Source: Daphnia pulex
Taxonomy: Eukaryota; Arthropoda; Branchiopoda; Diplostraca; Daphniidae
Assembly: GCF_021134715.1 (NCBI RefSeq)
Contig: NC_060022.1
Span: 4,655,001-4,719,000 of the forward strand
Direction of reading: 5' to 3'
Length of the DNA: 64,000 nt
Shown here: piece after piece, positions 10,531 to 43,802 of the stretch
How positions within the stretch are numbered: the first letter of the stretch is position 1
How the letters are laid out: every line of letters begins with the position of its first letter
The notes under the pieces: model-generated
Seen by the model: the letters and a program-made list of their open reading frames with translations, nothing else
What the model was told of the DNA's origin: nothing
Databases searched by the model: none
Position numbers and translations under genes: made by a program

Positions 10531-12532
10531 ATGGCAACTCCCGCCGGTGATAACGACTCAATTCAAAACGGAAGTGCGCTAAAAAGGTTAGAAACTTATA
10601 AAGTTCAATTAGAGAACTACCAGGAAAATAATGAATCACTAATAAATCCAAATGAGCTTCAACGACGGAATTACGATTTAAAAAAATTGTAGAAAGTTCA
10701 ATTAGAGAACTACCAAGAAAAAATATTGAATCACCAAATCCCAATGTGTTTCAACAGAATTACGATTAAACACATTTTCAGTTTAATTAGAGAACTACCA
10801 AGAAAATGTTGAATCTCTAATTCCAGATGTGTTTCAACGGAATTACGATTACAAATTTTTTTAGTTTTTAATTAGAGAACTACTAGGAAAATATTGAATC
10901 ACGAAAATCTAAGTGTAATTCAGCGAAATTGCGATCGACAAAATTTGTTTACGCTTTCAGGATTCATTTCCAAGAAGAGGGTCATCGAAGCGGTTACATT
11001 CCACGAGGAATTATTCCCGTCGATGACATTGGAAATGTTGAACCAGCTGGTTACGCTCCTGGAGAAAAGGAATTGCGATGCAAATTGGCCGCGCTTTACA
11101 GATTAGTGGATCACCTAGGGTGGTCCCAGTCGGTGTTTAACCACATTACTGTATGGCCAACTTTATCGATGCTAAGTTTTTTTATTAGATCGTAATTATT
11201 TGCTATTAACAAACTAACCAGGTTAAAGTGAGCGAAGATGACCATCATTTTCTCCTGAATCCATTTGGATTGCTCTACCATGAAATCACCGCCTCGTCAC
11301 TAATCAAAGTGGACGTCCAGGTACATCAATCAGCAATCAAATTATTTTTCTTTTTCAATTTTTACTTTTTGTTTTTCTCATCAATTAGGGCAACATGATT
11401 GACAAAGGATCCACCTATTTCGGTGTGAACATTCCTGGTTTTGTTCTACACTCGGCCGTTCATTCGGCACGTCCGGACGCCAAATGTGTGATTCACATTC
11501 ATCACGCATCCTGCATTGCTGTATGAAATGAAGTCGTTTCAACTGGAAATCAAAGCGCATGTCGCTAATGTCGCCATTCGTTTCCGTGTAATATTATATG
11601 CAGGTGGCTTCGATGAAATGCGGCTTTCTCCCGGTCAGTCAGGAGGCTGTACTCGTCGGCAACGTGAGCTACCACGATTTTTATGGCGTTCTGGTCGACA
11701 GAGCCGAGCGCGAAACCATCATTAAAAATTTGGGCAACAATCATGTACGTACACAGTTACACACACGCAGTTTATATATAGCCGTAGGTGGCGGGACGAC
11801 ATTAAATCATCACCCGAGCGCTCACGCAACGCGAGCACGCTCTCTTTTATTCCTGTATTTTTTTGTTTTGTGCGTGCAATTTAGATTATGTTTTTGCGTA
11901 ATCACGGCTTAGTTGTCGCCGGCCGCACGGTGGAGGAAGCTTTTACCCGTGCCTACCACACGGTGCTGGCGTGTGAAGCCCAAGTCACGATGATGTCCGC
12001 CGGTCTGGAGAACCTGATCATCGTTTCCGAAGAGGCCAAGCAGCGTTCCATGGTTGCATCATAATATTCCATTTTTTTATTACTACTTGTTTCCTTTCTA
12101 GTTTATGATAGTAGTATCAAGACAAATTTGTTTTTCTTTTTCTCGCTTGTGGCTCGTGTACACATAACAGGAAGTTGTTCGTCGCGCTCAAGAAATGATC
12201 GAAGATGGCGCCCTGAAAGAAAAAGCCGGCCAGCAGCAACCATCAGCAGCAGGAGACGTTGATACTAAAGAGAAGAAGGCGCCTCAAGTCAGGTGGAACC
12301 TCGGCGACCTCGAATTCGAAGCGTACATGCGGATGATGGACAATGCCGTAAGTTCAACAGACCGACTTTTTCGTTTATTGCCAGCACAACATATTATAAC
12401 AAACAATACGTAAATTTACATAAATGTGAATATCCTGTCATTGTTTTGTTTTTCGTTTCTGAAACGCTTCAGGGATATCGAACGGGATACCCGTACCGTC
12501 TTCCATCGTTCAAGAGACCGACAGAAAATTAA
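10531..12532 (+). CDS. Shortened adducin paralogue (class II aldolase/adducin head only)
   Basis: Eight coding exons: 10531-10586, 10961-11150, 11222-11320, 11389-11520, 11604-11744, 11885-12052, 12171-12347, 12473-12532; the sum is 340 residues. After an 18-residue leader ([10 protein letters not shown]...) the product is collinear with the adducin head of the next gene, sharing [55 protein letters not shown]-type and MFLRNHGL motifs and six intron positions. It lacks the roughly 100-residue N-terminal region and everything after GYRTGYPYR: the neck-tail region and the Lys-rich MARCKS-like end are gone. Adducin heads mediate oligomerisation, while tails bind spectrin and actin, so this protein could pair with or poison full-length adducin; that is inference. 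The sixth intron has a weak donor (GTTGCA). It looks intact, not a pseudogene. Confidence 0.82.
10603..10960 (+). repeat. Four-copy degenerate tandem repeat in intron 1 of the adducin-like gene
   Basis: Units start near 10603, 10696, 10781 and 10867 and are 85-94 bases long. Each carries AATTAGAGAACTAC, then a GAAAAT...TTGAATC block, then TTTCAACGGAATTACGAT or a variant. The last copy ends exactly in the TTTCAG acceptor of exon 2, so the repeat has grown up to the splice site. Confidence 0.85.
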
Positions 12533-26998: not shown

Positions 26999-28009
26999 CA
27001 ATCATCTCAGGTATTTTTAGCATGTTTTTAGAATCATTTAACTTTTTGCATTAATCTTTTATGGCCATCTGTCGCTTATCAATTATCAGTAGGTGACTAA
27101 AATAAATGTCCGCCAGGTGTCGGTCGCGAGTGAATTTTGGTCATTCGTTTCCGAGACACTCAGTGAGGACGTATTACAATATGGCATTTCCATTATGAAA
27201 GTAAAGTTAAAAAGATTTTGTTTCGTTACGAGACTGTATGGTTGCTAAACATAAAATTTTTACATGTTTATTTACAGGAAATCTAGCCTGTAATTTAAAA
27301 TCTGCCAAATCACGTTATCAGTTATCACGTGTGGCCTGAAACTGATGTCGTTGCTTGCTCTTGCTACTTGTATCGGTTGTATGTACAACCCATGCAAGTC
27401 TCTACTTGACTGCAAAAGTAAGTGTGTTATGTCAACTGATTTTCATTCGAATTTAGTTAATTGTTGACAGAGTAGATCTAGATCCTATTTTTTGTAGAAT
27501 CAACTGTGTTGCATCTTTAATGGACTTGTGGTTTTACGATTCCATTTCTATGGAGTTTACACTTACTTTTGTAAGTTGGGAAGTCTTGCCAAATGTAGAT
27601 TCTATTGAAAAATTTATGATATTAGAATGGCAACATGGGCACAAGTTCCAAAATAGAGCATCCTTGTAGTTTCGAGGGACTGTTTAGTTCAACTTTATGT
27701 CTTTCATTATATTACATCACACAAGACATTTCCTTCTCAATATTAATTTAATATTTTTTCAATTGTTTTAACAGCATCTGAGTATGAGCTGCAGCCAGTT
27801 GGTGAAGGTGTACACAAACCCAAAGTAAGAGTGCTAAATTCATTTTTCAATAAATTTAATATTTTTATTTTGAAGTCTTGCAGGGGACACTGACTGAATT
27901 GATTGACCCGGCAAATGGCGGTTCTTTGCATTATTCCATCCGACTACTTGTCCAGTCGTTTCAACTGAAGAATTTTTGCAGCGGATGGTGGAATATACGC
28001 GTAGAATAT

Positions 28010-28830
28010 AAATTACAAAGTATTAGGTCTGGAAGAAGAAAAGGTTGAGGCAGAACCCACTTCCAAAGGAGAAGAAACGAACTGAGCTTTTCTCGGTTAG
28101 CCTGTGCCGTTTCCCCTGACCAAACTTCTTCGATTCTTCTCTATGCGCACCTCTGCGTGGATCTTGACGTCCAGATAGAAGATGCCGTTCGACTCCTTCA
28201 GCAAGTAACCCTATTCATTTAAATTTTGTGTGATCAAATAGAAAATTTCGTTTTGGTTGATGCGCAGGTTGAAACGCTGCACGATCATCGACTAATGGAA
28301 AAATGCATTCAGAAATTAAACCAGAAAAAGTCGCTAGTCACAAAAAAAAGTAAAATTATCAACTTTCCTGCAAATGTACGATTAATTAATTAAACTTTAG
28401 TTTGCTCATCAGAAGGTTATCCACCTTCGATCATCATCCGTTAAATACGCGGTTGGACTTGTTATGATATACCAACATAGCGCTTGTAAGCCACCGTTAC
28501 TCTGTGTAATCGACTCCTGGACACACCATGATCCACAGAGAATATTTTGTAACGTCCTTTTCGACGATGGGGGATTCTTCCTTCGTTGCTGAAGGTAATC
28601 GTAATGAATTTTGAATCACCGACTTCCTACTCAACTTATTTGAATTTTTTTTACAAATAATTTAAAACTAAACACTGATGTGTCGTTCGTCAGCAGCCAT
28701 CCGAATATCGGGCTTTCTTTTGAACGTTTCAACGGCCGCCGATAATCCAATGCTGAGATGATGACCCTCTTCCCAGAGGATGAAGCCTTTGCTCTTTCCC
28801 TGGTCGGATAAAATTATACGTATTATCGTA
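28010..28830 (-). pseudogene. Exon-like fragments inside the left arm
   Basis: On the minus strand, short coding-like stretches are broken by stops and AT-rich gaps: one with SKGFILWEEGHHLSIGL, one with RRKGRYKIFSV, one with MIVQRFNLRIN, then YLLKESNGIFYLDVKIHAEV. The order is the same in the right arm (39670-40480, plus strand). I do not recognise the parent gene. They look like a host gene segment carried and decaying inside the duplicated unit. Confidence 0.35.
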
Positions 28831-30190
28831 TCGTATTATGTAATTGTCTGCCTTTTACGTACATTAGCTGCTAAATAGTTTCATCAAATTTTACGAGAAA
28901 TCAAAAAATTATTTAGGCCATTCAGGTTGTTTTTCTTAATTCAACCAATGTACAACTGTATGTAAAATTGTAAATCAGGTTCTTGTTTCACCTTTTCATT
29001 CATCATTTTGTAGCTTAAATCTTGTGTTATTTTGCAAACAATTTTAACTTTCACTTTACTTAAAAATTCCAGACAGAACTCCCTCTTACCTCTGGGTATC
29101 AATCTGGGTCGCCTCTGACCCCAATTAAGAAGTAAAGGCCCCCTGTGTAAGAAAGGTAGGCAAAAGGAAGGAATCCAACATAGAAGACTTTAACGTAAAC
29201 AGAAATCTAAAAGATTTATTTTATAACAACTTACAAGTGATTTTTTTGCTACAAAATAGCACTTATAAACCAATAAAATCAGACAAGGAAGAGCATTCAC
29301 AAAGACAAATAAGTGGAAGAACACAACTAATTAAATGAGACACAACACCCGTTATTTTATTAGGTGACATGTTGCTTTCTCACCCTCGATAATAACAGCG
29401 TCATTATTTTTTGACGCAGAAAAATTTGTTGATCTAGTTAGTAGTTGTCAATGAAATCACTCCTATATCATGTATCAGGTTCAGGTGTCTTAATCTTACT
29501 GCATGGAGCCATGGATGACATTGGAAACAGGAGATTTGACATGGTGGTCAAGTTAACAAACAACACATTGAATTGTGGCACCACAGACAGTAACAGCTTC
29601 AAGCACACCTTTCACCACCTCCATTAACAGCCTGAGCATCAATGGCCATTGAAACCTACAGAGAAAGATTCATCACAAGGCAAAGTGCAGAATAATAGAA
29701 ATAAAGTGAAAAGTTAAAAAAAGTGACACGAAAAGGTAGCAGTATACGATATTTCGTCAAGAATCTGGAATCACTAACAGTTGCCATAGACAAGGCACAT
29801 CGTCAGAAGAATCAAGAATATCAACTGTGAACTGTCAATAAGCTGCCTTCTCGGCTTCTCCTCATTAAACCTTGGGGATTTCGTCTGTTGTGATGTGTGA
29901 TGCTGCGGTGCTTTTTGGTGTTTTTGGTGAAGACGAGATGTAAATTTGGAGAGGGGAATATTACGTGAGTATCAAAGTTATTTGCCTTCGTTTGTTAGTT
30001 CTTTCTTTCAACTGTCAACGAGCTAGAGCGGACATTGTTTCCATGTATTTATTCTTTCTGACGCTAGACGGCTTAGCCTTTGATCATTTCCACTCAGTTT
30101 AGTTACGTTTACTTTGCACATCTCTGGAGAAATTTCTCGCTGCTACTACAAAGAAATTTTGGGTGATAGCTGTCAGTTTCTCTTTCAGCA

Positions 30191-30579
30191 ACAAAGCTCA
30201 CTTGTTAGATTTGTAATAATGTGGGTTTTTTTCTACTTCCGGTTTTCTCATTTCTGCCAGTAGTTTAGTAAATATTCATCTGACGCACAAAAGAACCACA
30301 TATTCGTGATCCTCGTCAAATTTGTGGTAAAGTTCATGTTCTCTTTTGTACGTACGCGTACTTCCGGTTTCGAGAATTTTCCTGAACTATATAGTTCAGG
30401 AAAAATCTCGATTTTGATCAAATTCTGGATTTCGTTTAAATTACCCCTAATCGACCCCAAATTTCACGGAGATCACGAATATTTGGTTTATTTGGTCGGC
30501 AGCTCAATGGTTAAGGCGCTATCGCTTACTTCCGGTATACTTCCGGAAAATTTGCATTAAACTAGCAAGTGAGCTTTGT
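30191..30579. mobile_element. MITE-like fold-back element, left-arm copy
   Basis: Ends are inverted ACAAAGCTCACTTG / CAAGTGAGCTTTGT, and the interior folds on itself: ATATTCGTGATC near 30301 pairs with GATCACGAATAT near 30471, around a centre CCTGAACTATATAGTTCAGG at 30384-30403. It is 389 bases with no coding capacity. A tRNA-D-arm-like string (GCTCAATGGTTAAGGCG) lies at 30502-30518, but no matching B box is seen. Confidence 0.75.
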
Positions 30580-30940
30580 TTTCTGTACAGTTCTAAGGAT
30601 TGATTGCTAGGTTTTAGCAAACAAATATGGACTTTTCAAGTTTGTTGAGTATCTTCAGACCATCTGCAAATACTGAGTTTTGAGACGTATCAAATAGATG
30701 GCGTGTTGATTGTGTCAATGGAATGGCGGTTTGTTGTCAAAAAAGCTATCCTTTCTTCGAAAATTACCAATGAATTCATTGGTAAATTCGAGTGATTTCG
30801 TCTCTAACTTGTCGGTGAGGTTTTCTATTCCGTGTATGTGTTGGATAACCTTAATGTTTCCCATCAACTTTCAGGAGGAAACGTGAAAGGGTCGTGGCCG
30901 TCGTGCAGCCTACCGTCAACTATTTGTTCAAAATCATTGT

Positions 30941-31010
30941 ATTCTACTGAATGTGCCATCCAAATGCTACAGATGATTCTACTGAATGTGCCATCGAAAT
31001 GCTACAGGTG
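30941..31010. repeat. 35-bp tandem duplication, left arm
   Basis: Two adjacent copies beginning ATTCTACTGAATGTGCCATC (30941 and 30976) differ at two positions. The same duplication is in the other arm, so it predates the palindrome or has been copied between arms. Confidence 0.9.
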
Positions 31011-32036
31011 ATAACCAACACAAGCTTTATCCATTTCATGTATTGCTGAAGCATATATTCTTCTCGTCTTTTATTAGGAGTCATAATTGTATTGGACTTG
31101 CTAGATCACCAACCCCAGCATAGACCAATCTCTCATTTCATCTTCTCGAGAGAAGATTGGATAACTGATCTGTGGTTTCATGTGTAAGTTCACTTATCAT
31201 GTCACTGAACTTTTTTCCATTGCAGTCTAACATATATGTATTTAAAGTATAGATTTCTAATTACGTCTATGGTCTATCTGATGTTTAAGAGACGCTTCTG
31301 AGTGTTTACTGATAATTGTTTATTCTTTTAGATCATAGACGTAGACATGAAGCACATTGATGACACAAATTATAAACAAGCTGACTTATTTTTCTTTTTT
31401 TATTTACAGGTTCTAAACTCCAGCTTTCTAAATTTGCATCATGGCAGACTTTATATGAGAGGTCATGTCCTTTCAAAAAGTCTACAAGGTCCCTTGTTTA
31501 CTAACCTGTTGGCTGCTACCCTTGAATCTCCCTTTTTACTTTCTTAAGCGGGCCATCTTTATTTGAGGTATTGCTTATTCTGTCGCTACAATCTTGTTTG
31601 AATATTATTGTCATCCAAATAAATGTTCATTCTGCTTACAGGGTAATCCTTCGCTACTTTTCACGGACTTCATCCACTGGTGAAAACCGACGAGAGAATG
31701 CTGTAATCCAAGACTGATAAATTGTGTAGTTAGATTCAATTACAAGTGCATTTCTGGGCTCCCTTCTTTTCTGTGGCCCCGTTTCCCTAACTAACCACTA
31801 ACCAACGCCCGCCGGTGGTCACTCACCCGCTGTGAAACCAGGAGGAGGGGAGGGCTCTGGTCGAACGGGGACTTGGAAGGCGCATGATCCGATGAAAACT
31901 TTTGGAGGGTCATGAGTCTAACCCGGAAGCCTAGTATGACTACATCTCCCCAGTAAAACTTGCCTCGTACTTCTCTCTTCTTCTCGGTCCAGATAAATAT
32001 CTCTGGGGGCCGTAGACATATCCTATAACAGCATGT

Positions 32037-32467
32037 GCGAGTTAAACAAAGCAACCCACTACCCAATGAAACAAAAAGCCATGGTTTATTTTTTGCAGAA
32101 ATCTGCATCAGTCAAGTTACAAATTTTTCTAATTCAACAACTCGCGTAGAATTTTGCATCTAGTCTATTAGTGCGAATCGCGATTCCATGTGTTTGGTAG
32201 TTTAGAAAATGGTTGTTTAAAAAACAAACAATGGGGTGTTCTGGGTAGCCAAAAAAACTCACCATTGTTTGTTTTTTAAACAACCATCTTCTTAACTACC
32301 AAACACATAGGATCGCTATTTGCACCAGTAGACTAGATGCAAAATTCGACAGAAGTTGTTGAGTTTGAAAAATTTGTAACTTGACTGACGCAGATTTCCG
32401 CAAAACTATACCATGGCTTTTTGTCTCATTGCCGCAGCGGTGGTGGCGGGTTGCGTTTAAACTCGTA
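32037..32467. repeat. Second fold-back (imperfect palindrome), left arm
   Basis: Halves of about 200 bases face each other: AAAAAGCCATGG near 32070 and CCATGGCTTTTT near 32411; TTTTGCATCTAGTCTA near 32151 and TAGACTAGATGCAAAA near 32329. The inner perfect stem begins GGTTGTTTAAAAAACAAACA (32211) and is mirrored near 32265-32287. Probably a decayed fold-back transposon. The copy in the right arm is at about 36025-36455. Confidence 0.75.
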
Positions 32468-33093
32468 CAGAAGAAAAATGTCTTGAACCGGACGCTCTGT
32501 TTATTGAAATTTTTGTACTTTTCAAAAAAAATAATAAAAACTAGTTTGATGTATTAAATTTTTTTATTTATTAAAGACATAGGGTTTGACATTGGTTTAT
32601 GTGGTTTAGGGTATACATTTGAGGGTTGATAGGTGTAATGTTTATGGGGTCTGAAGAATTGGAAGGTATAAGTTTGTGGGGTTTGGAGATTAATTGGTAG
32701 GGATATGTTTGTAGGGTTATAAATTAACTGTTTTTTAACCAAACTTGAAATATCCCCCTTCCACATCCTCCTCTTTCCTTTCCCAATCCCGAAAACATGT
32801 TTATTATTTGTTTGACATAAACATCCCCATATTTCTTTTTTGTTCCTTCTTAACATATTAACGGTATACTACATTGACACAATGCCAATTTCATAAAATA
32901 ATAATGCAACTTCGGTAACACGACACCAGCACCAAACGGCCAATTGAATTTGATGCAGAAAGATCTATAACCAGCATAGGCTGCAACAACGTACCACAGC
33001 GGACAGCAACTACGCGAACATACACGATAAACCTGTAACCGAAATGAAATGAATTAATCTTCACCATCATGGAAATGCTGTCTGAAAAGACAA

Positions 33094-34499
33094 ATTAATG
33101 ACACTTTCTATGGTTTTAGTTAAACCAAATATTCTGAAAACAATATCTGATAGCTATTGTTGAAACAAAAACAAAATGTGTGATTTAAACTACAACAAAG
33201 AAGAAAGAGAATCTAAGACTTTAACTGGATGTTAATCCTGCTTTTAAAAAATCAATTACTATCAAGCAGTAAATTCTCATGCGATAATAACAAAAATGAC
33301 ACAAGTATAGCTAAACTATGAAACCTCTCAGTGTCAGTTAGCAAGCTTTTTGAATCAGCCAGACAATTAGAAAGTTGATTGAAATAATTACTTCAGCTGT
33401 TCATGTTTCTTCATTTGACGAAACACACAGCAGTACAGGTAGCAAAGGACCCTTTACCAGCTGGCTGCATCAAATCCATGTGTACATTGGGCAGCAACGA
33501 CGAAGCTCAGACTTTGCCAGACTGTTTATCACTAAAAAAAAACTCAATTAGGCCTACTATCAAGGACACAGCATCTCAAATGACAAAAACAAAAATGACA
33601 GAAACTAAAGTTAACTACACAATCCTTTCGAATTTGCAAAGGATCCTAGAGCTAGCAAGCTTTTCCAAGGTAGACAACTAAAGTTCTACAACAGGCAAGT
33701 TAAGACATAGTCATCAACGAACTAAGTCTCACAGTTAGAAAGTTGAACATATTTACCTGATTTGTTCTGAAGTGTTTCTTACAAAACGTACAGCCAGTAC
33801 AGGAAAAAGAGACAACATCTTGGCAAAATGTACAGATGCTCAGGCCACATGATCAGCTGAAATTTCCTAGTAGATATTATAGACACAAGTAGAATTCACA
33901 CACAAATAATTAAGATTCAGTCACATCTAACAATTCAAACAGGAAATACCATTTTTATGAAGAAAAATGTCAGGAAGGAAAATACGCCGTACGGATTATC
34001 TATTGATACGCTTTCAATCAGTGCTCGAAAAAAAATGGCGGCGGACTTGCGTAACGAAGACTTATCGTTCCATATCAGTAGTTTTAAATGTGAATCATAG
34101 ATGGCGATGAAACTAGTATTTTAGTCTGCTAAAAAAGAGTCCAATTAAATGTCTGCCATTGCCAACCTACACGTGTTTTCCGTAATTTTCAGCAGTTTGT
34201 GTCAATTAGACCCATTTCTAATTAACCCACATTTCCCAAAAATGAAGAAATTCAAAAAGTGGATAGTAACTTTCATCTTTTCAAACTGGCAGTTAGTATC
34301 ATTAGATTATTTACTCGTGAATGGCATGTGACACTGTAGCCGGCTTTCTGTTACAATTTATTAGGAGATGACAAATTCCGTTCGCTGGATCTGAGTCCCA
34401 CAAGTCGTTGAATACTGTTTGAGATCATACGGACGTAAAGTATACAAGAGAGCAGCAGTTCATCCTCCATGTTCCAACAAAATGCCAATTGATTAAGAC
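33094..34499. other. Left part of palindrome spacer; Cys-rich exon-like stretch, otherwise nothing
   Basis: On the minus strand, 33759-33833 reads CTFCQDVVSFSCTGCTFCKK-HFRTNQ and ends at a CAG|GTAAAT donor; a decayed similar stretch lies near 33400-33450. No complete gene. The plus-strand start MAADLRNEDL at 34035 is open for only 22 codons. Confidence 0.4.
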
Positions 34500-35375
34500 T
34501 TGCCCTTGGTTTGGCCAATTGCCAGATCTTTCCATCTAGGTAGTGTCCCGCTGCCCTTGCATCAGGAATGGCTTGTTCTGGTGGCAACACCACCCCGTAA
34601 ATTTGCCAATGCAGAGTTGATGAAGATCCCCAACTTTCTTCACTTGACACTACCCGCTAGCCAAGCATCGAAAAGTGAGAACCCTTCAGTATAATAGATA
34701 TATTCATAAAGCTTTACGCATTATTTGTTTATAGAGATCTGCACAGAGTGGCCGAAAGAGTTGGATACCAACGAAAAGATTGAAAATCATTTACCTATCA
34801 CAATCACAACTAGTGATTACCTCCATTCTTCCCCCTCATTGAGGGATGCCCGATCCAGAATAGTAACACTCCAGGTCTGAAAAGAAGAAAAAAAGAGCAT
34901 TTCATATCCTGTTATAAGTAACTCTTTTCTTCCTTCATGTAGGTGAAATTGAGCTCTTTGAAATTGGACAATCACGCCAAGGATAAACTGCTTCGACTAG
35001 TGAAAGAGCATTACAACCTAGAAACTGACGTGCTGACGATTGTCTCTGAGCGGTGTCCTTTATGCAGAACGTCAATTACGCCATGTATCTGCTGAATGTT
35101 CTCGTCAGCGAGTCTTGGGTACGTCCTAATGTTTTGTTAAGCAAACAACAATTGCGTGCTAGTAATCGACACTTCCTCTTTTGTCTCTGTTGTTTGCCGT
35201 ACAGAAAACTGAGCCGTGGGAGGATGAGAAATGCGAAGCAGACATGGAAAAAATATGTGTGGGAAGGGAGCCAGTCGCAACGAACAGTGGAGCAGCTGCT
35301 CCAACGAATGCCGGACAAACAGAAAGCCCAAGACATGCCGGAGGTCATCGAACAGTACGCAGCCTATTCTGGTGA
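34500..35375 (+). pseudogene. Mitochondrial ribosomal protein mS35 (MRPS35) pseudogene, intron-containing
   Basis: Four exon-like blocks match mS35: 34500-34674 (KFANAELMKIPNFLHLT), 34735-34874 (CTEWPKELDTNEKIENHLPI), 34943-35118 ([20 protein letters not shown], then [15 protein letters not shown]) and 35205 to about 35370 (KTEPWEDEKCEADMEK, then VWEGSQSQRTVEQLL). Introns between them keep GT-AG ends, so it is not a retrocopy. It is broken: the frame shifts between RCPL and NVNYAMYLL near 35060, apparently a four-base loss, and again near 35250 where an A run has one extra base. The first block also looks shortened before its donor, and no N-terminal exons are present. mS35 is part of the mitochondrial small ribosomal subunit. 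It fills the right half of the palindrome spacer and stops about 25 bases before the right arm. Confidence 0.85.
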
Positions 35376-36024
35376 ATACCACATCACACTAACAGCCTTG
35401 TCTTTTCAGACAGCATTTCCATTGACGGTGAAGATTAATTCATTTCATTTCGGTTACAGGTTTATCGTGTATGTTCGCGTAGTTGCTGTCCGCTGTGGTA
35501 CGTTGTTGCAGCCTATGCTGGTTATAGATCTTTCTGCATCAAATTCAATTGGCCGTTTGGTGCTGGTGTCGTGTTACCGAAGTTGCATTATTATTTTATG
35601 AAATTGGCATTGTGTCAATGTAGTATACCGTTAATATGTTAAGAAGGAACAAAAAAGAAATATGGGGATGTTTATGTCAAACAAATAATAAACATGTTTT
35701 CGGGATTGGGAAAGGAAAGAGGAGGATGTGGAAGGGGGATATTTCAAGTTTGGTTAAAAAACAGTTAATTTATAACCCTACAAACATATCCCTACCAATT
35801 AATCTCCAAACCCCACAAACTTATACCTTCCAATTCTTCAGACCCCATAAACATTACACCTATCAACCCTCAAATGTATACCCTAAACCACATAAACCAA
35901 TGTCAAACCCTATGTCTTTAATAAATAAAAAAATTTAATACATCAAACTAGTTTTTATTATTTTTTTTGAAAAGTACAAAAATTTCAATAAACAGAGCGT
36001 CCGGTTCAAGACATTTTTCTTCTG

Positions 36025-36455
36025 TACGAGTTTAAACGCAACCCGCCACCACCGCTGCGGCAATGAGACAAAAAGCCATGGTATAGTTTTGCGGAAATCT
36101 GCGTCAGTCAAGTTACAAATTTTTCAAACTCAACAACTTCTGTCGAATTTTGCATCTAGTCTACTGGTGCAAATAGCGATCCTATGTGTTTGGTAGTTAA
36201 GAAGATGGTTGTTTAAAAAACAAACAATGGTGAGTTTTTTTGGCTACCCAGAACACCCCATTGTTTGTTTTTTAAACAACCATTTTCTAAACTACCAAAC
36301 ACATGGAATCGCGATTCGCACTAATAGACTAGATGCAAAATTCTACGCGAGTTGTTGAATTAGAAAAATTTGTAACTTGACTGATGCAGATTTCTGCAAA
36401 AAATAAACCATGGCTTTTTGTTTCATTGGGTAGTGGGTTGCTTTGTTTAACTCGC
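36025..36455. repeat. Second fold-back, right-arm copy
   Basis: Mirror of 32037-32467, with the same inner stem and CCATGG-flanked ends. Confidence 0.75.
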
Positions 36456-37481
36456 ACATGCTGTTATAGGATATGTCTACGGCCCCCAGAGATATTTATC
36501 TGGACCGAGAAGAAGAGAGAAGTACGAGGCAAGTTTTACTGGGGAGATGTAGTCATACTAGGCTTCCGGGTTAGACTCATGACCCTCCAAAAGTTTTCAT
36601 CGGATCATGCGCCTTCCAAGTCCCCGTTCGACCAGAGCCCTCCCCTCCTCCTGGTTTCACAGCGGGTGAGTGACCACCGGCGGGCGTTGGTTAGTGGTTA
36701 GTTAGGGAAACGGGGCCACAGAAAAGAAGGGAGCCCAGAAATGCACTTGTAATTGAATCTAACTACACAATTTATCAGTCTTGGATTACAGCATTCTCTC
36801 GTCGGTTTTCACCAGTGGATGAAGTCCGTGAAAAGTAGCGAAGGATTACCCTGTAAGCAGAATGAACATTTATTTGGATGACAATAATATTCAAACAAGA
36901 TTGTAGCGACAGAATAAGCAATACCTCAAATAAAGATGGCCCGCTTAAGAAAGTAAAAAGGGAGATTCAAGGGTAGCAGCCAACAGGTTAGTAAACAAGG
37001 GACCTTGTAGACTTTTTGAAAGGACATGACCTCTCATATAAAGTCTGCCATGATGCAAATTTAGAAAGCTGGAGTTTAGAACCTGTAAATAAAAAAAGAA
37101 AAATAAGTCAGCTTGTTTATAATTTGTGTCATCAATGTGCTTCATGTCTACGTCTATGATCTAAAAGAATAAACAATTATCAGTAAACACTCAGAAGCGT
37201 CTCTTAAACATCAGATAGACCATAGACGTAATTAGAAATCTATACTTTAAATACATATATGTTAGACTGCAATGGAAAAAAGTTCAGTGACATGATAAGT
37301 GAACTTACACATGAAACCACAGATCAGTTATCCAATCTTCTCTCGAGAAGATGAAATGAGAGATTGGTCTATGCTGGGGTTGGTGATCTAGCAAGTCCAA
37401 TACAATTATGACTCCTAATAAAAGACGAGAAGAATATATGCTTCAGCAATACATGAAATGGATAAAGCTTGTGTTGGTTAT

Positions 37482-37551
37482 CACCTGTAGCATTTCGATG
37501 GCACATTCAGTAGAATCATCTGTAGCATTTGGATGGCACATTCAGTAGAAT
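37482..37551. repeat. 35-bp tandem duplication, right arm
   Basis: Inverted counterpart of 30941-31010. Confidence 0.85.
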
Positions 37552-37915
37552 ACAATGATTTTGAACAAATAGTTGACGGTAGGCTGCACGACGGCCACGA
37601 CCCTTTCACGTTTCCTCCTGAAAGTTGATGGGAAACATTAAGGTTATCCAACATATACACGGAATAGAAAACATCACCGACAAGTTAGAGACGAAATCAC
37701 TCGAATTTACCAATGAATTCATTGGTAATTTTCGAAGAAAGGATAGCTTAACTTTTGACAACAAACCGCCATTCCATTGACACAATCAACACGCCATCTA
37801 TTTGATACGTCTCAAAACTCAGTATTTGCAGATGGTCTGAAGATACTCAACAAACTTGAAAAGTCCATATTTGTTTGCTAAAACCTAGCAATCAATCCTT
37901 AGAACTGTACAGAAA

Positions 37916-38302
37916 ACAAAGCTCACTTGCTAGTTTAATGCAAATTTTCCGGAAGTATACCGGAAGTAAGCGATAGCGCCTTAACCATTGAGCTGCCGAC
38001 CAAATAAACCAAATATTCGTGATCTCCGTGAAATTTGGGGTCGATTAGGGGTAATTTAAACGAAATCCAGAATTTGATCAAAATCGAGATTTTTCCTGAA
38101 CTATAGTTCAGGAAAATTCTCGAAACCGGAAGTACGCGTACGTACAAAAGAGAACATGAACTTTACCACAAATTTGACGAGGATCACGAATATGTGGTTC
38201 TTTTGTGCGTCAGATGAATATTTACTAAACTACTGGCAGAAATGAGAAAACCGGAAGTAGAAAAAAACCCACATTATTACAAATCTAACAAGTGAGCTTT
38301 GT
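37916..38302. mobile_element. MITE-like fold-back element, right-arm copy
   Basis: 387 bases with the same ACAAAGCTCACTTG / CAAGTGAGCTTTGT ends. Its centre is CCTGAACTATAGTTCAGG, two bases shorter than in the left arm. Confidence 0.75.
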
Positions 38303-39669
38303 TGCTGAAAGAGAAACTGACAGCTATCACCCAAAATTTCTTTGTAGTAGCAGCGAGAAATTTCTCCAGAGATGTGCAAAGTAAACGTAACTAAACTGAG
38401 TGGAAATGATCAAAGGCTAAGCCGTCTAGCGTCAGAAAGAATAAATACATGGAAACAATGTCCGCTCTAGCTCGTTGACAGTTGAAAGAAAGAACTAACA
38501 AACGAAGGCAAATAACTTTGATACTCACGTAATATTCCCCTCTCCAAATTTACATCTCGTCTTCACCAAAAACACCAAAAAGCACCGCAGCATCACACAT
38601 CACAACAGACGAAATCCCCAAGGTTTAATGAGGAGAAGCCGAGAAGGCAGCTTATTGACAGTTCACAGTTGATATTCTTGATTCTTCTGACGATGTGCCT
38701 TGTCTATGGCAACTGTTAGTGATTCCAGATTCTTGACGAAATATCGTATACTGCTACCTTTTCGTGTCACTTTTTTTAACTTTTCACTTTATTTCTATTA
38801 TTCTGCACTTTGCCTTGTGATGAATCTTTCTCTGTAGGTTTCAATGGCCATTGATGCTCAGGCTGTTAATGGAGGTGGTGAAAGGTGTGCTTGAAGCTGT
38901 TACTGTCTGTGGTGCCACAATTCAATGTGTTGTTTGTTAACTTGACCACCATGTCAAATCTCCTGTTTCCAATGTCATCCATGGCTCCATGCAGTAAGAT
39001 TAAGACACCTGAACCTGATACATGATATAGGAGTGATTTCATTGACAACTACTAACTAGATCAACAAATTTTTCTGCGTCAAAAAATAATGACGCTGTTA
39101 TTATCGAGGGTGAGAAAGCAACATGTCACCTAATAAAATAACGGGTGTTGTGTCTCATTTAATTAGTTGTGTTCTTCCACTTATTTGTCTTTGTGAATGC
39201 TCTTCCTTGTCTGATTTTATTGGTTTATAAGTGCTATTTTGTAGCAAAAAAATCACTTGTAAGTTGTTATAAAATAAATCTTTTAGATTTCTGTTTACGT
39301 TAAAGTCTTCTATGTTGGATTCCTTCCTTTTGCCTACCTTTCTTACACAGGGGGCCTTTACTTCTTAATTGGGGTCAGAGGCGACCCAGATTGATACCCA
39401 GAGGTAAGAGGGAGTTCTGTCTGGAATTTTTAAGTAAAGTGAAAGTTAAAATTGTTTGCAAAATAACACAAGATTTAAGCTACAAAATGATGAATGAAAA
39501 GGTGAAACAAGAACCTGATTTACAATTTTACATACAGTTGTACATTGGTTGAATTAAGAAAAACAACCTGAATGGCCTAAATAATTTTTTGATTTCTCGT
39601 AAAATTTGATGAAACTATTTAGCAGCTAATGTACGTAAAAGGCAGACAATTACATAATACGATACGATA

Positions 39670-40480
39670 ATACGTATAATTTTATCCGACCAGGGAAAGA
39701 GCAAAGGCTTCATCCTCTGGGAAGAGGGTCATCATCTCAGCATTGGATTATCGGCGGCCGTTGAAACGTTCAAAAGAAAGCCCGATATTCGGATGGCTGC
39801 TGACGAACGACACATCAGTGTTTAGTTTTAAATTATTTGTAAAAAAAATTCAAATAAGTTGAGTAGGAAGTCGGTGATTCAAAATTCATTACGATTACCT
39901 TCAGCAACGAAGGAAGAATCCCCCATCGTCGAAAAGGACGTTACAAAATATTCTCTGTGGATCATGGTGTGTCCAGGAGTCGATTACACAGAGTAACGGT
40001 GGCTTACAAGCGCTATGTTGGTATATCATAACAAGTCCAACCGCGTATTTAACGGATGATGATCGAAGGTGGATAACCTTCTGATGAGCAAACTAAAGTT
40101 TAATTAATTAATCGTACATTTGCAGGAAAGTTGATAATTTTACTTTTTTTTTGTGACTAGCGACTTTTTCTGGTTTAATTTCTGAATGCATTTTTCCATT
40201 AGTCGATGATCGTGCAGCGTTTCAACCTGCGCATCAACCAAAACGAAATTTTCTATTTGATCACACAAAATTTAAATGAATAGGGTTACTTGCTGAAGGA
40301 GTCGAACGGCATCTTCTATCTGGACGTCAAGATCCACGCAGAGGTGCGCATAGAGAAGAATCGAAGAAGTTTGGTCAGGGGAAACGGCACAGGCTAACCG
40401 AGAAAAGCTCAGTTCGTTTCTTCTCCTTTGGAAGTGGGTTCTGCCTCAACCTTTTCTTCTTCCAGACCTAATACTTTGTA
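39670..40480 (+). pseudogene. Exon-like fragments inside the right arm
   Basis: Inverted counterpart of 28010-28830 with the same coding-like pieces and the same interrupting stops. Parent gene not recognised. Confidence 0.35.
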
Positions 40481-41505
40481 ATTTATATTCTACGCGTATA
40501 TTCCACCATCCGCTGCAAAAATTCTTCAGTTGAAACGACTGGACAAGTAGTCGGATGGAATAATGCAAAGAACCGCCATTTGCCGGGTCAATCAATTCAG
40601 TCAGTGTCCCCTGCAAGACTTCAAAATAAAAATATTAAATTTATTGAAAAATGAATTTAGCACTCTTACTTTGGGTTTGTGTACACCTTCACCAACTGGC
40701 TGCAGCTCATACTCAGATGCTGTTAAAACAATTGAAAAAATATTAAATTAATATTGAGAAGGAAATGTCTTGTGTGATGTAATATAATGAAAGACATAAA
40801 GTTGAACTAAACAGTCCCTCGAAACTACAAGGATGCTCTATTTTGGAACTTGTGCCCATGTTGCCATTCTAATATCATAAATTTTTCAATAGAATCTACA
40901 TTTGGCAAGACTTCCCAACTTACAAAAGTAAGTGTAAACTCCATAGAAATGGAATCGTAAAACCACAAGTCCATTAAAGATGCAACACAGTTGATTCTAC
41001 AAAAAATAGGATCTAGATCTACTCTGTCAACAATTAACTAAATTCGAATGAAAATCAGTTGACATAACACACTTACTTTTGCAGTCAAGTAGAGACTTGC
41101 ATGGGTTGTACATACAACCGATACAAGTAGCAAGAGCAAGCAACGACATCAGTTTCAGGCCACACGTGATAACTGATAACGTGATTTGGCAGATTTTAAA
41201 TTACAGGCTAGATTTCCTGTAAATAAACATGTAAAAATTTTATGTTTAGCAACCATACAGTCTCGTAACGAAACAAAATCTTTTAAACTTTACTTTCTAA
41301 TGGAAATGCCATATTGTAATACGTCCTCACTGAGTGTCTCGGAAACGAATGACCAAAATTCACTCGCGAATCAATAGACACTCCGACACCTGGCGGACAT
41401 TTATTTTAGTCACCTACTGATAATTGATAAGCGACAGATGGCCATAAAAGATTAATGCAAAAAGTTAAATGATTCTAAAAACATGCTAAAAATACCTGAG
41501 ATGAT

Positions 41506-43802
41506 TATAATTTCATATGTTAAAGAAAAAAGTAGAAAAATGTAAACACTGTTCAAATTTCTTTTTCAAAATCACTTTTAAATCAATTTAGAAAATAAAT
41601 AATTTACCCCAGCTCCTGAGATAAATACATTCACTACTGCATGTCACAATTCTCGCAAACCTTTAATCGTTAAGCAGCAAAAGAGCATACTTTTTTATTT
41701 ACTTAAAACGCACAGGCCGCCAAACAAGAATTTTTGTATGCGCCCAGTCTAAGGATTTCCTTTATAAATGAGGATTGATAAACGTTCAGGGAATCTCTGT
41801 ACGTGTGTGTGTATTTGAGAAAGGTATCACTTAAATATACAATTCAACCTTTATGATATCTCGTGGTAGACGGGAGTATAACGGAGCGTACATGCATGTT
41901 CATGTTGTGTTTTTTTTTTTGTTTTTTGGGTTTTTTTTTTTGTTTTTTTTTTTTTTTTTGGGTTTTTTGTTCAATTTTGGAAACAAGGTGAAAATGTGCA
42001 AGAGACGGAACTTGTTGGTTTTTGAGTTGGGTAAACTAACGGATACAAATGGATGTACAATGGAAAGGAATACCAAACTAAAACAAGGTTCCAATTCAAA
42101 CTAATATTTTAGCCAATCATCCATTGAATTTAGGGAGGATTGGGTAATGGCCAGGAAAGGTTAGGATATACTAGATGAAATTTTGGTTAAATCTGAGATG
42201 ATGAACCAATGTAGGTATACATTTTAATTAACAAACACGTTTAACACACCAGAGCCAACATTTACAACGGTATGAAGATTCATGTATGATACAATCATCG
42301 CAATTACCATATATATATATATGTATATATATATATACACAAAACTATAGATTAATGATATTTTAATTTTGTGTATAATATTAATAATAATAATGTACAC
42401 GGACGCACCGTTCATATGGGAGTGGATGAATTACTCTCTAACCCAATGTTCTTTTGCATGGCGGAGGGCTTTCTATTAAAATCATGTTGCACCGAGGCAT
42501 GTGATATAATACCTATGTCATAGCGAAATAAAGAGTTGGATAGAAAACAACAAAATATAGAACATCGAGTTGTTGTCGCCCACCAGGTAATTTCAACTGT
42601 GCATACACTGTACAAAAATCCATTTGTTTTAGTACAAAACAAAACAAAACAAACAATCCCTCATCAAAAAAAGAGGACCTGAAAAATCCACTCTTGTGTA
42701 CAGTACAGCACAGTATCGTGGCAGGAGGGAGTGAATAAGCTGCATCGTCGAGAGGTTTCCAAAAACATGCCGAACAAAATAGAAAAAAACAACAATAATA
42801 ATAGTAGCAAAAAAGAAAAAAAAATATATAGAATAACAACAGGTTTATGTAAATGTAGATGTAATGTAAGCTTTGGCAATGGCCGACGATAATTACTCAG
42901 GGTATATCGAAGTGAGATAGAGCTAATGTGTCTAGCCGTCTCTCAATTATTTTGGCGCCCGATTGATTTCACGTTTCACTCTGAAGGAGTTTTGAAACGC
43001 GAACAAGCACTCTGTTACGGCATTTAAACGTTTGTTTGTTTTGGTTTGGTTTTTTTACTCGTCTAAATATGTTCTAAATGCCTTTTGAATATCCCCTCTC
43101 TTTCCCAGGTCGAACAGTACCAGCTGCCTTTTTTGTGAGGACTAGGGTAGGAGAGAAATATATATATATACTGTATACGTAACGAATAATTTCATTTGAT
43201 TTTTTAGATTTCTGTTTAACTTAAATATAAATATAGAAAAACCAGTTCAATTTTGAAACCGAATCAGTAATAGCGATACAGAATTTATAAAGTACCGGCG
43301 CTGTTAATCAAAAACTAATGCACAGGAATAATAAGTATTTCCCTTTCTTTGCATTCTCATTTTTCTGTAATATAGAGAAATACGAATTACTTCCTCTCTC
43401 TTTTTTTTTTTTTTAAATTTTACAAATACAGTCAATATAATATAAAGTCATTAATATTATCTTAAAAAGAAGAAGAGCCATCACTTGAGTTTTTAAGCGT
43501 ACGAAGATGTGGTCGAAAGTCAAAATGACCCACAGCAGCAGAGTGTGCTCTACCCCGACAATCCGGAAGGTGATTTTTTTGTTTGGTTTTTTTCCCCCTT
43601 AAATTAAAAGTGTGATGTTTATAGTATGTAACTGATGATGATTATTTTTGTCACGTTAGCATTAAAACGTGTAGATACGTGTGAGTGAGAATGTCATCAA
43701 AGTGTGACGAATGCGTGTGTGTGTGTTTCCGTGTTTCTTTGTTTGAATCTGTGTGGGTGGATGTTGAACGATGTGGTACCAGAAGAACTCGACGGTTCTT
43801 TT
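41506..43802 (-). other. Probable dunce 3' UTR and downstream DNA
   Basis: Lies between the outer palindrome border and the dunce stop. T/G-rich near 41908-41962, a TA microsatellite at about 42307-42336, and A/T runs. No coding exon supported on either strand. The UTR end is not marked by a clear poly(A) signal. Confidence 0.5.

What the first reader, a model, noticed from the sequence alone, without database searches (positions are those of the whole stretch)
27001..41505. Giant palindrome: two 6.1 kb near-identical inverted arms around a 2.3 kb spacer
Seen directly: every landmark in 27001-33093 recurs inverted in 35398-41505, with paired coordinates summing to about 68,500 throughout. Small independent indels (13 bases near 27124, TA near 30392, three bases near 30738) argue against a simple assembly fold-back. 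Large arms with high identity in a palindrome are known in sex chromosomes and amplicons to be kept alike by arm-to-arm gene conversion. Here it sits between ordinary housekeeping genes and carries no intact gene.
Basis: partly seen in the sequence, partly recalled or inferred. Interest (0 to 1): 0.85.

Follow-up and report, generated by a model that had tools for sequence, protein, structure and literature searches.

The report
Dispersed palindromes with self-matching arms
This 14.5 kb mirror-image stretch of mostly non-coding DNA belongs to a family of large palindromes scattered through one genome, whose two halves tend to stay nearly identical while different family members drift apart, most likely because each half keeps being copied over the other.

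Summary
The palindrome is real: arms 27000-33093 and 35398-41506, 99.59% alike, 4 substitutions and 6 indels, 2304-bp unlike spacer. It is not alone. In this 133.19-Mb eukaryotic genome the arm recurs at many loci, mostly on contig C6 among the copies scored, often as +/- pairs. I read 14 further loci: nine W-type, five of a related A-type. In 10 of 14 loci where both arms could be placed in a tree, a locus's own arms are sisters (97-100% identical), while loci differ by about 2-15%. Four spacerless A-type palindromes with coinciding centres are 8-14% apart yet 98.5-99.2% arm to arm. Differences cluster at arm ends in 10 of 12 loci tested, with identical tracts up to 4.7 kb. Arm-to-arm gene conversion predicts this; recent one-step duplication or assembly fold-back does not. 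One arm pair holds part of a neighbouring host gene (ENPP). No shared termini, target duplications or transposase were seen in what was tested. Unexplained: a non-coding core, 98-100% conserved in the 40 copies scored of 439 candidates, beside a roughly 390-nt hairpin.

The parts
27000..33093 (+). left palindrome arm (6094 bp)
   Evidence: 99.59% identical to the right arm, inverted
35398..41506 (-). right palindrome arm (6109 bp)
33094..35397 (.). spacer, 2304 bp, not palindromic; parts of it recur at many other loci
   Evidence: 69 matches, 40 of 168 first-look candidates scored
35050..35364 (+). spacer fragment resembling the mS35 (mitochondrial ribosomal protein) gene, broken
   Evidence: PDB mS35 chains, best E 0.0029, 20 residues aligned; exon and intron reading by eye
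27000..27812 (+). outer arm segment shared with the A-type family of spacerless palindromes
40682..41506 (-). mirror of the A-type outer segment
   Evidence: coordinates
31738..32487 (.). conserved core of the arm, taken as non-coding (31740-32060 is 98-100% identical in the 40 copies scored)
36005..36754 (.). mirror copy of the conserved core in the right arm
   Evidence: coordinates; one search lists both copies
32064..32431 (.). imperfect inner hairpin, 85% self-complementary; RNA fold of 32050-32445 is -230.9 kcal/mol, z -26
36061..36428 (.). mirror copy of the inner hairpin

Best explanation
The locus is one member of a dispersed family of large, mostly non-coding palindromes. SHOWN: the palindromic organisation is older than the divergence among several loci, yet the two arms within most loci read are nearly identical, and in most of them the residual differences sit at the outer ends or at the centre. 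INFERRED: after a palindrome is copied to a new place, its arms pair (within a chromatid, between sisters or between homologues) and repair one another by gene conversion, so the interior is repeatedly made identical while the edges, where conversion tracts run out, drift. INFERRED: repair synthesis that runs past an arm's end copies flanking DNA into the other side, so arms can lengthen outward and pick up host gene pieces. INFERRED: new loci arise by copying segments of existing palindromes to other places, mainly on the same chromosome, by a process that leaves no fixed termini.
For: Arm trees of 18 arms from 9 loci and 20 arms from 10 loci: arms are sisters in W (99.9% by substitutions), P2950 (99.9%, right arm partial), P3530 (100.0%), C4 (99.9%), C8 (100.0%) and P1227 (97.3%), while loci are about 85-98% alike. 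P3274's arms (98.5%) group together with a 100%-identical copy of one of them at P3130. A-type: C6_459, C6_4250, C6_4580 and C1_3370 are spacerless, 7.8-9.7 kb long, 98.5-99.2% arm to arm by substitutions, sisters with support 1.000. Left-left, left-right, right-left and right-right comparisons between two loci agree (for example 84.2-84.5% for C6_459 against C6_4250), and centres coincide to within the stretch of roughly 100-260 bp that did not align, so the palindrome is ancestral and its arms evolve together. Differences along the arms (12 of the 15 loci, without P3130, P3695 and C6_5259; null: uniform placement): over-dispersed in 11 of 12 (p<0.001; W p=0.11); enriched within 300 columns of an arm end in 10 of 12 (p<0.05; W p=0.0025); longest identical run above expectation in 10 of 12 (up to 4721 bp; not W or P2950). 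P2950's arms contain ENPP exons (E 1.5e-25) in a stretch with only two full-length places in the genome, the two arms; outside the palindrome the right copy runs on into consecutive upstream ENPP exons, while three of the 13 left-flank open pieces were tested and gave no match. W's inner edges have two ancestries: the left edge continues like the P1227/P3695 type, the right like the P3274 type, yet the arms are identical from 30839 to 33065, with two differences in the last 28 bp.
Against: Three of 14 testable loci do not have sister arms: P3415 (97.7% by substitutions, 95.4% with gaps), P3130 (95.2% and 92.1%) and C6_5259 (90.0%). P3130 looks like a recent copy of two different P3274 arms, so it may simply be young; P3415 and C6_5259 are unexplained exceptions. 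P3695 could not be tested (one whole arm only). P3274's differences lie in the arm interior and P3415's rise towards the centre, neither being enriched at ends (p=0.96 and 0.62). For W alone, two of the three clustering statistics are not significant. The uniform null does not allow for uneven mutation rates. Of five outer arm segments searched genome-wide, only P2950's is locus-unique; C4's has relatives on C6 and the other three have relatives elsewhere, so outward growth rests mainly on one clear case. No reads, other strains or species were available.
Confidence: 0.8

Rival explanations
1. Each palindrome was made recently and separately by one inverted duplication; the arms are alike only because they are young.
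For: Arms are 95.4-99.7% alike in 7 of the 9 loci (P3130 92.1%, P3695 84-92% in pieces), and P2950's left arm looks like an inverted copy of DNA native to its right side.
Against: Four A-type loci have coinciding centres at 86-92% identity between loci, with arms at 98.5-99.2%, so separate origins at the same centre would be needed. P3274 and P3415 share a centre junction. Differences are clustered, not uniform, in 11 of 12 loci. W's two inner edges have different ancestries.
Confidence: 0.08
2. It is a foldback-like or long-TIR DNA transposon family, and arms match because each insertion is a fresh copy in which one arm templated the other.
For: Multi-copy and dispersed over several contigs, inverted-repeat architecture, captured gene fragments.
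Against: Read by eye, outer ends differ from locus to locus and no target-site duplication was seen at the 12 loci printed. Thirteen of 74 open pieces of arm and spacer gave no transposase. P3130 and P3274 share two mutually different arms, 3454 bp at 100% and about 4.2 kb at 99.2%, so copying does not by itself make arms equal. Among the loci read or listed, no source as close as the arms are to each other was found for W, P3530, C4, P1227 or C6_4580.
Confidence: 0.1
3. Assembly fold-back artefact.
For: Near-identical inverted arms are a classic artefact; no reads could be inspected.
Against: The arms differ by indels and substitutions, the spacer is asymmetric, flanks are unlike on the two sides, and the organisation recurs at many loci with different arm lengths and divergence.
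Confidence: 0.02

Closest known systems
Mammalian X and Y chromosome palindromes kept alike by arm-to-arm gene conversion (PMC8981503 and PMC3403216: passages seen)
   Same: Two inverted arms around a spacer, arm identity above 99%, signs of conversion, unstable spacers and shifting arm boundaries (a PMC8981503 passage reports spacer sequence that is arm sequence in another species).
   Different: Arms here are about 3-8 kb, not tens to hundreds of kb; mostly gene-free; a dispersed family of related palindromes on several contigs; no known link to sex chromosomes.
Palindromes reported in Adineta vaga and Folsomia candida (PMC7953838: passages seen)
   Same: Palindromes in an invertebrate genome, discussed with gene conversion.
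   Different: Those were found by collinearity of annotated genes; D. pulex was left out of that palindrome screen for lack of annotation. Ours are mostly non-coding repeats that such a method would miss.
Foldback-like transposons such as Galileo, Tetris and Tm1 (search listing and abstract starts; for Galileo a term search of the text found none of my terms)
   Same: Multi-copy inverted-repeat units, largely non-coding.
   Different: No fixed ends, target duplications or transposase found here in what was tested; arms longer (lengths of known foldback elements recalled, not from a call).

Membership tests
Palindrome maintained by arm-to-arm gene conversion | two inverted arms flanking a spacer | tested here: met
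Palindrome maintained by arm-to-arm gene conversion | arm-to-arm identity above 99% | tested here: met
   99.59% with gaps, 99.9% by substitutions in the core
Palindrome maintained by arm-to-arm gene conversion | arms of one locus closer to each other than to any paralogue | tested here: met
   W_L/W_R 99.9% against at most 98.0% to another locus read; true of 10 of 14 testable loci
Palindrome maintained by arm-to-arm gene conversion | differences gathered at arm edges | tested here: met
   W: 5 of 10 events within 300 columns of an end, p=0.0025; 10 of 12 loci significant, P3274 and P3415 not
Palindrome maintained by arm-to-arm gene conversion | conversion events seen between strains, species or generations | not testable with these tools
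   no other strain or relative of this genome is held (it has no relatives here)
Sex-chromosome palindrome | lies on a sex chromosome and carries reproductive genes | not testable with these tools
   contigs are unnamed; no intact gene found in 13 arm and spacer pieces
Foldback-like or long-TIR DNA transposon | same termini in all copies | tested here: not met
   outer ends differ by locus in the 12 loci printed, by eye
Foldback-like or long-TIR DNA transposon | target-site duplication | tested here: not met
   none seen by eye at the ends printed; at W only a 4-base ATAA near each end, offset by one base
Foldback-like or long-TIR DNA transposon | transposase gene or autonomous partner | tested here: inconclusive
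   no Pfam match above cut-off in 13 of 74 arm and spacer pieces; the genome was not screened for a partner

The most novel reading that the evidence does not exclude
The family is a self-spreading palindrome system without a transposase. Palindromic DNA is broken and repaired often (perhaps at the roughly 390-nt hairpin in the W-type arms); repair copies one arm onto the other, runs outward into flanking genes so that arms lengthen, and occasionally seeds a segment elsewhere. The nearly invariant non-coding core beside the hairpin would be the part that makes a palindrome heritable as a repeat: a break site, a pairing site or a hairpin-RNA gene.
Probability: 0.2. Interest if true: 0.88.

Novelty: new variant of a known kind. 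Interest (0 to 1): 0.62.

Why it matters
Arm-to-arm gene conversion is usually discussed as a rescue device for sex chromosomes that cannot recombine. A dispersed family of short palindromes (15 loci read here, more listed), at different stages of homogenisation, growth and decay in one small genome, would be a replicated natural experiment on how palindromes arise, how long conversion tracts are, where conversion stops and when a palindrome escapes it.

Tried and rejected
Spacer flip: P3274 and P3415 carry the same spacer junction in opposite orientation. I first read this as inversion by arm-arm recombination, then dropped it, because insertion in the opposite orientation gives the same picture. 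Fixed transposon ends: boundaries near window 27812, 29676, 29932 and 33093 recur in some loci, but none is shared by all loci read and I saw no target duplications. The W end motif, searched genome-wide with up to one mismatch, was found at both W ends and once at C6:469636 exactly, plus three one-mismatch sites. Coding potential: the 106-aa frame 31794-32111 (minus) has no stop in C8 and C4 and one in P1227, but differences show no third-position excess (C8 3,7,5) and it has no Pfam match, so I take it as non-coding; the differences are few. RNA structure: the inner hairpin folds strongly, but only 1 of 161 predicted pairs has a change on both sides and many changes break pairs. Rfam: no match at the gathering score in the window; 19 matches below it over 31600-32500, mostly miRNA precursors. 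ARAGORN, run with the bacterial code, found no tRNA. GC-biased conversion: arm G+C is 37.2-39.1% and not consistently above flanks in 7 loci. A first edge test for W (5 of 10 events within 215 bp, p about 0.0003) used a limit chosen after seeing the data; I rely on the 300-column test. Organism: Daphnia pulex is recalled from genome size and contig number, not proven. Literature: seven library searches, some longer than the rows listed, showed no paper whose title or abstract start reports such a family in Daphnia; most listed papers were not opened, so that is not proof of absence.
Full report
OBSERVATION. The inverted repeat is present as described. Self-BLAST joins 27000-33093 to 41506-35398 over 6112 columns at 99.591%. 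The spacer is 2304 bp and the flanks are unlike. Each arm also contains its own smaller hairpin (32064-32431 in the left arm), 85% self-complementary.

SETTING. The window is part of contig C6 (7.26 Mb) of a genome of 133,188,837 bases in 13 contigs. I take it as a eukaryote: genes are split into short exons. By size and contig number I recall Daphnia pulex, assembly KAP4; no call proves this (that a KAP4 assembly, GCF_021134715.1, exists was seen in a passage of PMC12102780). The palindrome lies between a TPR-protein gene and a cyclic nucleotide phosphodiesterase gene.

A FAMILY, NOT A SINGLE CASE. Searching 3 kb of the arm returned 114 matches, 40 of 1033 first-look candidates having been scored. 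By my count of that listing, 31 of the 40 longest matches lie on C6, about 5% of the genome; that share is of the best-scored candidates only. Many come as +/- pairs a few kb apart. The outer 0.8 kb and the spacer have their own sets of relatives. I read 14 more loci: eight W-type, one W-type on C8 and two A-type, three A-type. With the window that makes ten W-type and five A-type loci. The two types share the segments 27150-27811 and 32763-32991 of the window.

WITHIN AGAINST BETWEEN. Arm-to-arm identity with gaps in the W-type: W 99.6, P2950 99.7, P3530 99.7, C4 99.5, C8 99.0, P3274 98.1, P1227 97.7, P3415 95.4, P3130 92.1, P3695 84-92 in pieces. Loci differ from one another by about 2-15% by substitutions. 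In trees of the core, arms are sisters at W, P2950, P3530, C4, P1227 and C8; P3274's two arms group with P3130_L, a 100%-identical copy of one of them; P3415 and P3130 are not sisters; P3695 was not testable. In the A-type, C6_459, C6_4250, C6_4580 and C1_3370 are sisters with support 1.000 and C6_5259 is not. So 10 of 14 testable loci have clean sister arms, one is complicated by a copy elsewhere and three are exceptions.

WHY THIS MEANS HOMOGENISATION. Four A-type palindromes are spacerless, have centres that coincide to within the roughly 100-260 bp that did not align, and are 8-14% apart by substitutions, yet each is 98.5-99.2% arm to arm. Left-left, left-right, right-left and right-right comparisons between two loci agree. 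The palindrome is therefore ancestral and the arms have been made alike since. The positions of the remaining differences mostly agree (12 of 15 loci tested against uniform placement): over-dispersed in 11 of 12, gathered at arm ends (outer end or centre) in 10 of 12, with identical interiors of 3-5 kb in P3530 (4721 bp), C6_4580 (3583), C8 (3216) and C6_459 (3153). Against this, P3274's differences lie in the interior and P3415's rise towards the centre without edge enrichment. W itself shows edge enrichment (p=0.0025) but neither significant over-dispersion (p=0.11) nor a significant longest run (p=0.13), having only 10 events. W's inner edges carry sequence of two different ancestries although the arms are identical from 30839 to 33065 and differ at only two places in the last 28 bp.

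GROWTH AND SPREAD. P2950's arms reach about 2.6 kb beyond sequence shared with the families, into DNA that includes ENPP exons. That stretch has two full-length places in the genome, the two arms; ten further hits are 45-57 bp long and lie outside the ENPP reading frame. On the right the gene continues into consecutive upstream exons of the same domain; on the left, three of 13 flanking open pieces were tested and matched nothing. I infer that the left copy was written from the right. C4's arms carry a DUF4789-like gene piece (E 1.2e-5, 26.2 bits against a cut-off of 27). Its closest relatives outside C4 are on C6: a copy at 1.746 Mb beside a W-type arm copy, and a tandem cluster at 2.07-2.09 Mb. 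This suggests that a palindrome carried a gene piece between chromosomes; the direction is not shown. P3130, read in reverse, matches P3274's outermost left arm and right arm with the middle missing (3454 bp at 100.0% and about 4.2 kb at 99.2%). The two arms shared are unlike each other, so copying to a new locus does not by itself equalise arms.

UNEXPLAINED CORE. Inside the W-type arm, 31738-32487 is more conserved between loci than its neighbours, with sharp edges. In the eight W-type relatives aligned no difference from W appears between 31753 and 31880; a second, diverged copy of part of this block in the outer C8 arm does differ. The part 31740-32060 is 98-100% identical in all 40 copies scored of 439 first-look candidates, 33 of the 40 on C6; the scored ones are the best candidates. 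It is followed by a hairpin that folds at -230.9 kcal/mol without compensatory support (1 of 161 pairs). Some variants in the core are shared across loci in a patchwork (P2950 with P3415; C4 with C8 and P2950), which suggests exchange between loci as well. Purifying selection, preferred exchange or both could explain it.

COMPARISON. Mechanistically this works like the conversion-maintained palindromes of mammalian sex chromosomes, including unstable spacers and shifting arm edges (PMC8981503, passages). It differs in being a dispersed, short-armed, mostly gene-free family. A survey of palindromes in parthenogenetic animals left D. pulex out for want of annotation (PMC7953838, passages). It fails tested features of a classical foldback transposon (shared ends, target duplications).

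VERDICT. Observation confirmed, interpretation supported, and enlarged: a dispersed palindrome family whose arms evolve in concert within most loci read. A new variant of a known kind.

Noticed in passing
window 31738-32487 and mirror 36005-36754: Conserved core, apparently non-coding, with sharp edges; its first part is 98-100% identical in 40 scored genome copies, next to a roughly 390-nt hairpin; cause unknown.
   Followed up: partly
G000 C2:1464812-1481708, C2:4049458-4061323, C1:5222225-5237114, C10:15893375-15898898, C10:15196546-15204567: Mirror-paired hits with equal or nearly equal scores in both copies suggest further palindromes on other contigs.
   Followed up: no
G000 C6:5259501-5268500 (L037): A-type palindrome with interrupted arms whose two arms are only 90% alike and whose left arm is closest to another locus: may show what happens when conversion stops.
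   Followed up: partly
G000 C6:2066608-2091883: Tandem cluster related to the DUF4789-like gene piece carried in the C4 palindrome.
   Followed up: no
window 10601-10902: Tandem array, 3.5 copies of an 85-bp unit.
   Followed up: no
window 30941-31012 and 37480-37551: Two-copy 35-bp tandem repeat inside both arms.
   Followed up: no
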